From NCBI RefSeq assembly GCF_932294415.1, contig NC_065536.1, forward strand, positions 18,783,974 through 18,847,973: DNA of 64,000 nt, read 5' to 3'. This document shows, piece by piece, positions 17,398 through 31,648 of the stretch (its first letter is position 1; each line of letters opens with the position of its first letter). The notes under the pieces were generated by a model. That model searched no databases and was not told the DNA's origin. It saw nothing but the letters and a program-made list of their open reading frames with translations. The position numbers and the translations under genes are program-made. The DNA is from Quercus robur. Its lineage: Eukaryota > Streptophyta > Magnoliopsida > Fagales > Fagaceae.

Positions 17398-19030
17398 TTA
17401 GTTTTGTGGAGGAGTGTTAGCAAACTTCCATAGAAATTGCTCATTGCCTAGATAGCTTCTACCACCAGCTACTTCTTCGATTGGTACAGCATCAGTTATC
17501 TCCTTCAGGTCATCTTCTGTAAATTTCACGTTCAAAGAGCCAATATTGTCATCTAAGTTCTTGATCTTAGTTGTCCCTGTTAAAGTTCAAGGCAAATGAA
17601 CATTGAGAAATAGCAGGTGAAAGTCTCAACTTGCCTCAACTTTTAAAATCTACAGTTCCAAAGGGCTCTAATACAAAAGCAACTGTTTATACTAAATAAA
17701 TAAGATTGAAAATGAGAACATTAGTGAACTTTCCTGCCGAAAGAGAAAAGAAGATATATACACACAATCACCCTTAAACTATGTATGGAACTAGCAGTCC
17801 TCTCTTCCTAATTATCAAATTTTGAGTTTCCTGCCTGTGGGAGGTACAAAAGGGTGCACTGGACATAATAAAATTCCACTCTGCTTCATCATCATCATTC
17901 ATGTAACACTTTCAATGAAAAGTAGATAACTCAGCTAAACCTTGATTAATGTTGTTAGATTTTTTCTTAATACAGTTCCCTATATATTTAGCGTACCTGC
18001 ATATATTTTTTAGCAATTTTAATATCAAAAACACATAATTGACTCATGATTTATTATTCCTCAAAATCAAACTACCACTCCTGCAAAAAGTCAGTAACTA
18101 GCCAGCCGTATGGCCAATGATGCCTTCAAGACATTGTGATCACAAACCGTAACCCATAATAAAATCTGAATTAGTTATGACCACAGCCTAGGACTATGCT
18201 TATGAATATGTTAACAGGAAATTAAAATCTGAGTTTTTCTGAGGCCGTTATGACATCAGAGTGGGCAATATATATGTAATTTCCAGCCATGAAGTGGGTT
18301 GATATCCATTTATATGCTAAACTTTGAAACTTGAGGCAGGAAATCCTTACGTAACTTGGATTGGGATAATTCTGATATATTTCCTCAACTTCTATATCAA
18401 CTTTGTCCACAATAAGATGCAGGAAATCTAAATATTACTTGTTTCAGCTTAAGTGGGGAAAAGAGCACACTTGTAGTCAAGTTAATTTCAATTTGAAGCA
18501 CACAAAAGATAATAGTATTCATAACAAGAAATAGAATCTTCAGCGCTTTTCTTTCTCTTTTTGAAAACTTAAATACATAGCACATTTTTGACAAGTAATT
18601 AATCAGGACAAAAAACAAAAAATGAAAGCCAATTACCAGGTATGGGTGCAATGTCGTCTCCTTGTTTGAAAACCCATGCAAGTGCTAGCTGAGCAGGAGT
18701 GCATTGGTGCTTTCTAGCAAGTCTTTCTATTCGAGTATAAATGGTCTTGTTCTTCTCCAAATTTTCTCCATGGAACCGAGGGTGCTTGGCCTTATAGAAA
18801 ATAAAAATTAAAAAAAATAAAGAAGCTGGTTTTCAGTTTCATTTGAAGAATTTTTATTGTTGTTATTACTATTTTATTATGGAGAAAGAACAAATTCTTG
18901 AAATCATCTCTATAAGATGGTTCTTATAGTACAACAACAAAGCCTTAATCCCAAGCTTTTGGGGTTCGCTAGATTTTGAACAAAGTAATAATGCAGAAAG
19001 TGCGAAGAAAAGTTTATTTTAATTTAGTCT

Positions 19031-19143
19031 TGTTATGAGTAATAGGGGCAAAATAGTAATATCATGTACTTTATATATAAATAATATTTTATGTGTTCGG
19101 GGTTTACTTATCAAACCCTAAAACACTTTCACAGTAAACAACA
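19031..19143 (+). repeat. Copia 5' LTR (113 bp)
   Basis: Starts TGTTATGAGTAATAGGGG and ends GTAAACAACA. It differs from the 3' LTR at about five places including a 3-bp gap, so the insertion is not recent. Confidence 0.95.
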
Positions 19144-19155
19144 TGGTATCAGAGC
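19144..19155 (+). promoter_or_regulatory. Copia primer-binding site
   Basis: TGGTATCAGAGC directly after the 5' LTR is complementary to the 3' end of initiator tRNA-Met, the usual primer of plant Copia elements. Confidence 0.95.
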
Positions 19156-19738
19156 CACCAAACCGCCGCTGCCGTTAACCCTCCAACCACCACCCACCGA
19201 TATTGTTGTCGCCGACAACCATATCCCTACTCGCTAGCTCCGACAACCCTAATAGAGACTCCGACGATCTCGATTTAGTGGCTGAAGAAGTTGTCCAGCG
19301 CCGGTGACCCTTTGTCCAGTCTTGCGACACCAAATCGACGTCGCTTGATCGCGAGAGAGGCAGGGTTTTACTCACTGGTCCTCGTACCGCTGCTCCTGCA
19401 CCCTAGCGTCGCCGCCGAAGCTTTTTCAATTGAGGGTTTCAACCATGGTCTGATTTTCTTCTCTTCTTCAATACATTCTCTGCGTATCTGTTCAGGCAGC
19501 CTTAGGTTGATGTTTAGTGGTGGATTGGGCAATTTTTTTTTTTTTTTTTTTTTTTTTTTGGTGTTGGTATGGATTTGTTGCTGCCTTGTTTTTTGGAATA
19601 GTTTGGTGTTGATTCGTTGATAGATGAGTTACTGTTGACGTGGCTGATTGGTTGAAGTATATTGGTTGTTGGTTGGAGTTTGGTTTAATTCAGTCCAGCT
19701 TATTTCTTTAGTGTTAGTTTGTTCTTCAGATTGCTATT

Positions 19739-28043: not shown

Positions 28044-29080
28044 TTTTTTTTTTTTTAATAAGTAATAAGGATTTATTGATTAATTGATTTCAAAAAGAAA
28101 GAGACACCCAAGTACACAAGAAGTATACAAGGGAGTACATATCAAATACAAAAATTACATAAATCAAGTAAATCCAAAATAGAAGAAAAATGTTGGTTTC
28201 TCCACACTGAGAACCAGTCCAATAAGGTTCTGAAAAATAGAAACTTGAGATCAGGCATAGAATGCTCATTGTCTTCAAAACACCTACTGGCTACTACTTC
28301 TTTCCTTCCAAATACACCACATCAAACAATGAGGAACAACCATCCATATATCTCCATTTTGATGGCAACCAAATCGACCTTGCCAGCAAGCAAAATGCTC
28401 AACAACAGACATTGGCATAACCCAACAAACTCCAAATAAACCAAAAACCATGTCCCATAACTCCAGAGCAACCGAACAATGAAGGAATAGATGGTCAACA
28501 GTTTCATTATTACATTTGCACATATAACACCAATCCAAAATGCAAACCTTTCTTTTCCTTAAATTGTCAATTGTCAGACATTTCCCCAAGGCAACGATCC
28601 ATACAAAGAAAGCAACTCTAGAAGAAATCTTCTGCTTCCAAATGCTTTTCCAAGGGAAAAATTGTTCATTGTGGCCAACTAGAAGATGGTAGAACGCACT
28701 AACCATAAACCCCTTACTCTTACAAGGTAGCCAACATCTTTTATCCTCCCCAATCCCCCTTACAGAAGTACTATAAATGGTATTTATGAAGCTCTAGAAA
28801 GCTTCCAATTCCCTATTATGAACATCCCTACAAAAATTTATCTCCCAATGAAGGACTCCATTGGAGTACCTCATTAGATCAGCCACACTCGCCTCTTTGT
28901 TTCAACAAATCCAATATAATTCAGGATAACAGTCTACAAGAGGAGATGATCCACACCATCTATCTAGCCAAAACTGCACTTTTGATCCATCTCCAATTTC
29001 ATACAGAAAAAACCGAGATAAAGAGGGCCACCCCCTTCTAATATTTTTCCACAAACTAACTCCATATGGACCAGAGTTTA
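28044..29080 (-). mobile_element. Second 5'-truncated LINE fragment in AKR-2 intron 5
   Basis: A T run at 28044-28056 marks the poly-A of a minus-strand LINE. The coding remnants are the C-terminal zinc-type domain (CYMCKCNNETVDHLFLHC, within 28706-28284) and an upstream part (within 29129-28902). It belongs to the same family as the LINE at 23878 and shares the 3' tail. Compared with AKR-1 intron 5 the site lost about 18 bp on insertion, and no target duplication is visible. Confidence 0.85.
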
Positions 29081-29486
29081 TATGAGTGAATAAGGTTATT
29101 AGTAGTTTATTTAAATTTCCTTTAGTCAAAAGTATTTTTGTTATTCAATACACGACTCTCCCAAGTTGTTGCTGCATCCATTTCGGTTTTGTCCTGTGTC
29201 AACTGATCGGAGTCAGCCATATGTATTCTTCTTCACAACTATTCTATCCGATCAAAAATCATACTTTGTCACCTCCTTAATCAATATATCATTTTTTACT
29301 ACTACTAATGTTACCTTAAGTCTTCCACTATTTTCTTTTGTGGATATATTTGAGATGATTTAGTTCATAAAAGAGATCGAAGGAACACAAAGATAAGAGA
29401 TCTAGGGAACAAAAATACCCGTTTGTTTCTTCAATACTTATGTATAATTTCTCATCAATAAAATTGATTTACTTATAGAAAAATGA

Positions 29487-30126
29487 AGGGAAAATAACTA
29501 ATTTGGTTCCTGAAGCTTACAAGAAGTTATATTTTCTCCCTAACATTAGGGAGGTCAACGAGTTGAGGCAGTTTGGGTTTGGTATCAACCTGCTACTTGA
29601 CTAACTCTTTTTTTGGGTTGGGAACTTCCCTGCATGTTGTTTACTAGATTATGGGTTGAAGTGGATAACACCCCAGTTTTGGGTGAGCGGTTGGGGTTGT
29701 TTGGCAGGGAAGGAGAAGAGCAGAAGTGAGTGGAGAGGGTCAGTGATGAGTGGTAATCAGTAGATGACATGACACAACCAAGTGCTAACTAATGCCAACA
29801 GATGACGTGGCACAACTTAGCGATGATTTGGAAATTGGAAACATATACTGACCTTTTTGTTCTTTTCACTTATCTGTGAATAGTTATTACTCTTCTACCT
29901 CATCTTCCTATCATTCTAGGTGGACTTCCAATTGGCAAATCATCATCTAAGTCATGTCAGGTTAGCTATTTGACGTGACAGGTCATCTATTGTATGTGTG
30001 AGGCAGATAGAAAAGCTTAGTTGAAAAACGTTAAAAATGTCAGCAACTTGTTTGCAAATTTTCAAATATTAGAGACGAAATTGGAACTTCTTGTAAACTG
30101 CAAGAACTAAAATAGTTGTTTTCCCT
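29487..30126. mobile_element. 640-bp TIR element in AKR-2 intron 5
   Basis: Orthologous to 4919-5558 in AKR-1, with the same ends and length. It shows the two introns are true duplicates despite the transposon load. Confidence 0.6.
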
Positions 30127-31648
30127 CGTAGGAATTTTTCACTCGATAATATTGAAGTATGCATTGCTCAAAAAGAAAACAATTATTGCCTGAAGAATTG
30201 TGCAGAAAATTTGAAAGTCCACAAATAAAGGAGAAACATTATTGGTGAAATATGTACCAGGCGGCTATTTGCATTCAAATTTTCCACAACTCCTTTGCCA
30301 GCGAAAAAACCACGGCCAAGAGGACTGTATGGAACTATACCAATGCCAAGCTCCCTACATGAACAAAGGCATCAAGAGAGCATTCTCATGCTTTTGGATA
30401 AGATAATTACATATAATGAAATCAAAGCTGCCTACACAAAATGGATACAAAACCAAATAAATTTTCCTTATAGTGGCAGTCATTCAAAGAAGATAATGGT
30501 CTTTGAAACCTAAGGGAAGACACAATGACTAATGAACAAGCAGCTCTAAATTTAACTCCACATCTAGAACAAATGAACATTGTAATCTTCTTATATGTGG
30601 AAGTACTCATGAGGCCAAAATTATAAAAAACATCATCTGTGAACAAAATAAACCTGCAAAGTGGAATTATCTCCTCCTCGATATCACGACTCCAGAGAGA
30701 CTACTCCATTTGTACAGCTGAGATGGGATGCACAGCATGTGCCCTCCTTATTGTGTCTGGGCTGGCTTCAGATAAACCAATATATTTGACTTTTCCCTCC
30801 TCTACCAGTTTCTTAAGTTCACCAACCTACATTGCAATAAGATGTATTTAATCATATCTGCCGCTTAGATCCCACCATCTACATTGAAATGATGAATTTG
30901 CAGAGAATTTCATAATTTCAAATTACAAAAAAGCAAGCAAGAATTTTTAAAATCACCCATTGCAGGCATCTAGTTGAAAGAGCAAGAGAATCACTTACAG
31001 TTTCTTCTATGGGTACTTTTGTGTCTACCCGATGCTGATAATACAGATCAATATATTGCACATCAAGACGCTGCAAGCTAGCCTCACAGCTTGAGCGAAC
31101 ATACTCAGGGCTACCATTCACCTGCGTCTGAGGAAATCCTGATTTTTGGACGCCAAATTTGGTGGCTATTTGAATTTTCTCTCTTGGCAACTGTTTCAAG
31201 GCCTGAAAGATATAAACTACTTTCAGTTAAATAGCATAGAATTTTAACGTGGTCCTCGATCAATTAACTAACAGATAATATAAAAAGTAGTAACAAAACT
31301 TTCACATCTGTGACCATCTTCAGATTTACTACCAGATAGGAACAAAAACATTTGACTTCTTGAGCTAGTAAAAGTAAATATTAGTGTCTTTTACCTTTCC
31401 AATAAGAATTTCATTAGAATGGGGTCCATAAACATCAGATGTATCAAAGAAAGTGATTCCCTTATTGAATGCATACTTTACTATTGAGATTCCATCCTCC
31501 ACAGAGAATGGAGAATTTTGGGCTTCAGTCAGGGACATACATCCAAACCCCAACTTTGAGACCTGGGGGGAAAAAAGAAGAGTTTAGAATTACAAAGAAA
31601 TGAGAAACAAAAAGTTAAGAATAAATGTAGTAAAATGATAATAGAGCG

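What the first reader, a model, noticed from the sequence alone, without database searches (positions are those of the whole stretch)
18791..30257. Four-level nested insertion: AKR-2 intron > Copia > hAT > LINE
Each outer border is marked by its own target duplication (AGTCT for Copia, CCTACACT for hAT), the AKR-1 intron shows the Copia-empty site, and removal of the hAT insert restores the RNase H reading frame. The intron grew from about 1.5 to 11.5 kb while all splice sites stayed intact.
Basis: seen in the sequence. Interest (0 to 1): 0.72.

Follow-up and report, generated by a model that had tools for sequence, protein, structure and literature searches.

The report
Ordinary nested transposons in plant intron
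One intron of a duplicated plant reductase gene was swollen from about 1.5 to 11.5 kilobases by four mobile elements, three of them stacked inside each other, and the gene itself carries a stop codon and looks dead, so this is a well-preserved but ordinary case of transposons piling up.

Summary
Confirmed, with corrections. Intron 5 of the second of three tandem aldo-keto reductase genes (minus strand) is 11,467 bp, against 1,469 bp in AKR-1 and 1,415 bp in AKR-3. A Copia retrotransposon (19031-27997, TSD AGTCT) holds a hAT element (23414-27458, TSD CCTACACT), which holds a 5'-truncated LINE (about 23878-26829). Empty sites support each layer: AKR-1 for Copia, 16 of 16 sister Copias fetched for hAT, 57 of 57 other hAT loci without this LINE. 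AKR-2 also has an in-frame TAG in exon 4 (codon 186), and its lineage-specific changes (18 nonsynonymous, 5 synonymous) fit neutral decay, so intact splice sites do not mean an intact gene. Nesting shows that hAT entered Copia; it does not show that the LINE entered hAT afterwards, since hAT moves by cut-and-paste. Neither LINE has a clear TSD; the inner one ends in a 26-bp copy of its own interior, suggesting template switching. The phenomenon is well known.

The parts
18791..30257 (-). Intron 5 of AKR-2 (donor at 30257, acceptor at 18791 on the minus strand), 11,467 bp
   Evidence: GT-AG borders; 15 of 15 exon bases shown before the donor match AKR-1, whose intron is 1,469 bp; AKR-3 intron 1,415 bp
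19026..19030 (+). Copia target-site duplication AGTCT, left
   Evidence: single copy at the aligned AKR-1 site
19031..19143 (+). Copia 5' LTR, 113 bp, TG...CA
19031..27997 (+). Copia LTR retrotransposon with its inserts (8,967 bp; about 4.9 kb of it Copia), antisense to the host gene; coding region decayed
   Evidence: gag_2/gag_3, Pol_BBD, gag_pre-integrs, SH3_retrovirus, RVT_2; LTR pair; broken frames
23406..23413 (+). hAT target-site duplication CCTACACT, left
   Evidence: uninterrupted site in 16 of 16 sister Copias fetched
23414..27458 (+). hAT element, taken as non-autonomous, 4,045 bp with its LINE insert (about 1.09 kb of it hAT)
   Evidence: ends and TSD; family copies of 848-1,570 bp with 8-bp TSDs
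23878..26829 (-). LINE A, 5'-truncated, poly(A) at the low coordinate, reverse transcriptase domain
   Evidence: RVT_1; no LINE A match in 57 of 57 other hAT loci; other LINE copies match only to 26808-26809
26804..26829 (-). 26-bp repeat of LINE A's own interior (first copy begins at 26535) at its 5' junction, putative template-switch scar
27459..27466 (+). hAT target-site duplication CCTACACT, right
27888..27997 (+). Copia 3' LTR, 110 bp
27998..28002 (+). Copia target-site duplication AGTCT, right
28048..29076 (-). LINE B (borders approximate), 5'-truncated fragment, a separate insertion in the same intron beside the Copia; not in the finding
   Evidence: zf-RVT; absent from AKR-1 and AKR-3; high-copy family, 1,267 first-look candidates
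30701..30703 (-). In-frame TAG in AKR-2 exon 4 (TGG in AKR-1, Trp in AKR-3)
4221..5689 (-). AKR-1 intron 5, empty-site reference for Copia and LINE B

Best explanation
After the AKR-1/AKR-2 duplication, intron 5 of AKR-2 received at least two independent insertions: a Copia retrotransposon (5-bp TSD) and a truncated LINE fragment (LINE B). A hAT element, probably non-autonomous and moved by transposase supplied in trans, inserted into the Copia's RNase H region (8-bp TSD). A truncated LINE (LINE A) came to lie inside that hAT, most simply by later target-primed reverse transcription in place. None brings evident function; the insertions were tolerated because they are intronic and the gene was, or became, a pseudogene. 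Shown: Copia and hAT borders, empty sites, absence of each inner layer from the relatives examined, the stop codon. Inferred: order of LINE A against hAT's arrival, the template-switch mechanism, trans mobilisation, pseudogene status.
For: Empty Copia site in AKR-1. hAT-empty in 16 of 16 sister Copias fetched, the best 16 of 39 other scored places. LINE A absent from 57 of 57 other hAT loci held. 8-bp TSD perfect in 42 of 53 hAT copies, control 0 of 53. LTR K2P 0.047 +/- 0.021, against AKR-1/AKR-2 distances of 0.057-0.095. Domains. Stop codon and substitution pattern.
Against: The terminal branch of the hAT arms (0.057 and 0.051) exceeds half the LTR distance (0.024 +/- 0.011), as if hAT were older than its host Copia; such branches are only upper bounds, because the nearest relative may be lost or unsampled. 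LINE A (0.031) is not shown to be younger than the Copia either. The LTRs are short, so the date is weak. The two AKR lineages do not differ significantly in substitution pattern (Fisher p 0.26). No transcript or haplotype data.
Confidence: 0.93

Rival explanations
1. Compound hAT: LINE A was already inside the hAT when it jumped, as one 4-kb unit, into the Copia.
For: Cut-and-paste need leave no sibling copy, so absence of LINE A from the other hAT loci does not exclude it; hAT ends and TSD are intact; the LINE A branch 0.031 is not shorter than half the LTR distance 0.024.
Against: 53 of 53 hAT copies measured with both ends are 848-1,570 bp (the loci held are about 3.4 kb, so a 4-kb element could not have shown both ends), and 57 of 57 loci lack LINE A sequence; one step more than insertion in place.
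Confidence: 0.15
2. The Copia retrotransposed into the intron while already carrying hAT (and LINE A), as one RNA.
For: Not excluded by the TSDs alone.
Against: 16 of 16 sister Copias fetched lack the hAT; the insert interrupts the element's own pol, so help in trans would be needed.
Confidence: 0.04
3. Assembly artefact joining unrelated repeats.
For: Nested repeats are a known source of misassembly (general knowledge).
Against: Copia and hAT each have an exact target duplication and match an uninterrupted site elsewhere; AKR-1 and AKR-2 align on both sides of the insert. LINE A's borders match an uninterrupted hAT site but have no TSD, so this layer is the least protected.
Confidence: 0.02

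Closest known systems
Nested LTR-retrotransposon and transposon clusters of plant genomes, as in maize (recalled)
   Same: Elements inserted in elements, order read from target duplications
   Different: Inside one intron of a low-copy gene, with a tandem paralogue as empty-site control
Plant genes with TE-bearing introns (rice; PMC7145194: start of abstract in the listing and passages seen)
   Same: Transposable elements accumulated inside introns
   Different: No chromatin or transcript data here; this host gene carries a stop codon
hAT non-autonomous elements (features recalled)
   Same: 8-bp TSD, short terminal inverted repeats, many copies
   Different: This copy is enlarged by a LINE
LINE-1 template jumping (human ORF2p; PMC10830420: passages seen)
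   Same: A cDNA continues on a second template; microhomology is proposed to help
   Different: Plant LINE; inferred here from one junction only

Membership tests
Copia LTR retrotransposon | Two LTRs with TG...CA ends and a 5-bp TSD | tested here: met
Copia LTR retrotransposon | Copia-type gag and RVT_2, with integrase-side domains before the reverse transcriptase | tested here: met
   gag_2/gag_3, Pol_BBD and gag_pre-integrs, SH3_retrovirus, then RVT_2 (E 2.8e-43; a second RVT_2 piece at 22.9 bits is under its cut-off of 31.6); the integrase core was not reported, and the piece 27554-27865 gave no family
Copia LTR retrotransposon | Intact coding region (needed for autonomy, not for membership) | tested here: not met
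   several open stretches in different frames; hAT interrupts it
hAT transposon | 8-bp TSD | tested here: met
   window copy perfect; 42 of 53 family copies perfect, 0 of 53 in the control
hAT transposon | Short terminal inverted repeats | tested here: met
   TAGGGGTGTCAATG in 38 of 53 left ends, AATTGACACCCCTA in 34 of 53 right ends; the window copy has diverged ends
hAT transposon | Transposase related to hAT, in this or a partner element | not tested
   No transposase search was run; size suggests a non-autonomous element
L1-like LINE (LINE A) | Non-LTR reverse transcriptase and 3' poly(A) | tested here: met
   RVT_1 E 1.6e-25 on one of three LINE A pieces, the other two gave no family; A-run at the 3' end
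L1-like LINE (LINE A and B) | Target-site duplication | tested here: inconclusive
   Longest shared words are 7 bp and not at the borders; the uninterrupted hAT sites leave at most a few bp for LINE A; LINE B seems to have lost target bases
AKR13-type aldo-keto reductase (host) | Sequence relationship to perakine reductase | tested here: met
   Exon 6 hits 3v0s at E 5.5e-21; other exons were not searched; the class name AKR13 for perakine reductase is recalled
Functional AKR gene | Open reading frame across all exons | tested here: not met
   1 internal stop in AKR-2, 0 in AKR-1 (its full-length read of AKR-3 failed)

The most novel reading that the evidence does not exclude
The hAT element picked up a truncated LINE and then jumped with it as a single 4-kb composite into the Copia, so that the nested order is not the order of events; LINE A itself ended by two microhomology-guided template switches instead of a normal endonuclease-made target duplication.
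Probability: 0.13. Interest if true: 0.3.

Novelty: new member of a known kind. Interest (0 to 1): 0.15.

Why it matters
It is a clearly bordered example with empty-site controls, useful for teaching, for checking transposon annotators and for ordering insertions in this genome. The correction matters more than the nest: intact splice sites do not show an intact gene, and nesting orders only those layers whose movement leaves a copy behind.

Tried and rejected
Regulatory effect of the insert: nothing was tested beyond a count of AATAAA motifs on the gene's strand (12 in the AKR-2 intron, 6 in AKR-1's), which shows nothing special for an intron eight times as long. Absolute dating: rejected, because the LTRs give only 5 substitutions in 110 columns and no calibrated rate is at hand. 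Dating by terminal branches (trees of 58, 48, 17 and 11 sequences): upper bounds only, and for hAT above the LTR-based figure. The Copia branch rests on 94 bp. An automatic TSD search on hAT copies with a poor end pattern (1 of 48 within one mismatch) was discarded because the pattern missed the right end visible, and was replaced by alignment-projected ends (45 of 53 within one mismatch). A first dN/dS script failed from a misplaced exon border and was redone. A search for other copies or haplotypes of the AKR-2 flank did not complete. Papers: four searches; two papers seen as passages only.
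Full report
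What was checked. The window holds three tandem aldo-keto reductase genes on the minus strand: AKR-1 (exons from 8977 down to 2860), AKR-2 (33504 down to 17398) and AKR-3 (45715 down to about 39.6 kb), with the same seven-exon plan. Exon 6 resembles perakine reductase (3v0s, E 5.5e-21). Intron 5 is 11,467 bp in AKR-2, 1,469 bp in AKR-1 and 1,415 bp in AKR-3. The donor windows of AKR-1 and AKR-2 are identical, and so is the intron side of the acceptor.

Layer 1, Copia. LTRs at 19031-19143 and 27888-27997 differ by 4 transitions, 1 transversion and one 3-bp gap over 110 aligned bases (K2P 0.047 +/- 0.021). AGTCT lies on both sides; the aligned AKR-1 site has it once, and the AKR-1/AKR-2 alignment resumes on both sides. 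Ten open pieces were scanned against Pfam. Of six Copia pieces, five gave Copia-type domains in order (gag_2/gag_3; Pol_BBD and gag_pre-integrs; SH3_retrovirus; RVT_2; and a second RVT_2 stretch under its curated cut-off) and one gave nothing. The coding region is split into stretches in different frames apart from the hAT insert, so it is broken at other places too. AKR-1/AKR-2 distances over five stretches, two of which include exons, are 0.057 to 0.095, in line with insertion after the duplication.

Layer 2, hAT. The element is 23414-27458 with CCTACACT on both sides. The left arm gave 40 scored places of 655 first-look candidates, the right arm 40 of 846. Of 53 copies with both ends in hand, 42 have a perfect 8-bp duplication, 3 one mismatch and 8 two to five; with the right side taken 40 bp away none of 53 is better than two mismatches; both are the best of 13 offsets. 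Copies measure 848 to 1,570 bp. The 16 best of 39 other scored Copia places were fetched over 140 bp each: all 16 run through the site without an insert, 92 to 99% identical to the left flank, 12 of 16 with the exact CCTACACT. The other 23 places were not fetched.

Layer 3, LINE A. None of 57 other hAT loci held (29 from the left arm, 28 from the right arm, one doubled place left out) has LINE A sequence. Six loci (L012, L015, L020, L023, L025, L030) have a short uninterrupted form of the site, reading TCTTCTCAC where the window is split; most of the others carry some 20 more bases there. Against L012 and L023 the LINE sits between ACTCT and TCTCAC with no more than a few duplicated bases. The reverse transcriptase domain is on the minus strand (RVT_1 on one of three LINE A pieces). 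Of 39 other LINE copies scored with 26300-26840, 38 end at query position 509 or 510 and one at 490. Ten of these were fetched, and all ten continue differently after AAGAAT, where the window instead repeats 26 bases of the LINE interior and then enters hAT. The longest repeat in 20 base shuffles of the same stretch was 13 bp. I read this as reverse transcriptase switching template at AAGAAT and then joining the target at a 3-4 base overlap; template jumping is described for human LINE-1 (PMC10830420, passages). A repair-made junction is not excluded.

The missed piece, LINE B. At about 28048-29076 a second truncated LINE, on the same strand and 69-71% identical to LINE A where they align, lies in the intron about 45 bases beyond the Copia. 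One piece carries a zf-RVT domain, and its family has 1,267 first-look candidates. AKR-1 and AKR-3 lack it. It begins in a run of T where AKR-1 has TTTTA, and about ten target bases appear lost (inference). Copia with its inserts (8,967 bp) plus LINE B (about 1.03 kb) account for the 9,998 bp of growth to within small indels.

The host gene. Exon 4 of AKR-2 has TAG at 30703-30701 where AKR-1 has TGG and AKR-3 has Trp; it is codon 186 of 344. Polarised by AKR-3, AKR-2 has 18 nonsynonymous and 5 synonymous codon changes and AKR-1 has 7 and 5. For AKR-2 this equals the neutral expectation (p = 1.0) and departs from omega 0.23, the AKR-1/AKR-3 value (p = 0.001); AKR-1 is undecided (0.156 and 0.246), and the two lineages do not differ significantly (Fisher p = 0.26). 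Pseudogene status is therefore likely but not shown; no transcripts were available, and a sequencing error at the stop is not excluded.

Order and age. hAT lies in Copia, so Copia existed first. hAT moves by cut-and-paste (established knowledge), so a hAT already holding LINE A could have jumped as a unit without leaving a sibling. Terminal branches were 0.057 and 0.051 for the hAT arms, 0.031 for LINE A and 0.011 for 94 bp of Copia, against half the LTR distance of 0.024. These are upper bounds from sampled relatives, and the hAT figure runs against a simple clock.

Host. The matches listed lie on twelve contigs (C1-C6, C35, C37-C41) of a 786-Mb assembly. By recall this suits a member of the oak and chestnut family; no call establishes it.

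Verdict. A real, well-bordered nest of known element kinds, with one further sibling insertion, in a probably dead gene copy. Ordinary.

Noticed in passing
30701-30703 (-): In-frame TAG in AKR-2 exon 4; Trp in AKR-1 and AKR-3.
   Followed up: yes
28048-29076 (-): Second LINE fragment in the same intron, from a very abundant family, with apparent loss of target bases instead of a duplication.
   Followed up: partly
12183-12242 (-): Isolated copy of AKR exon 1 (75% protein identity) between AKR-1 and AKR-2; the tblastn of exons 2-6 found nothing beside it. Possible relic of a further copy.
   Followed up: no
37468-38346: Tandem array of a 199-bp unit, 4.4 copies, between AKR-2 and AKR-3.
   Followed up: no
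16947-17089: Stretch that matches its own reverse complement (84%) near the AKR-2 3' end, related to repeats near 2308-2558 and 39113-39295.
   Followed up: no
62735-62759: Run of 25 G in a 34% GC stretch; possible assembly or sequencing feature.
   Followed up: no
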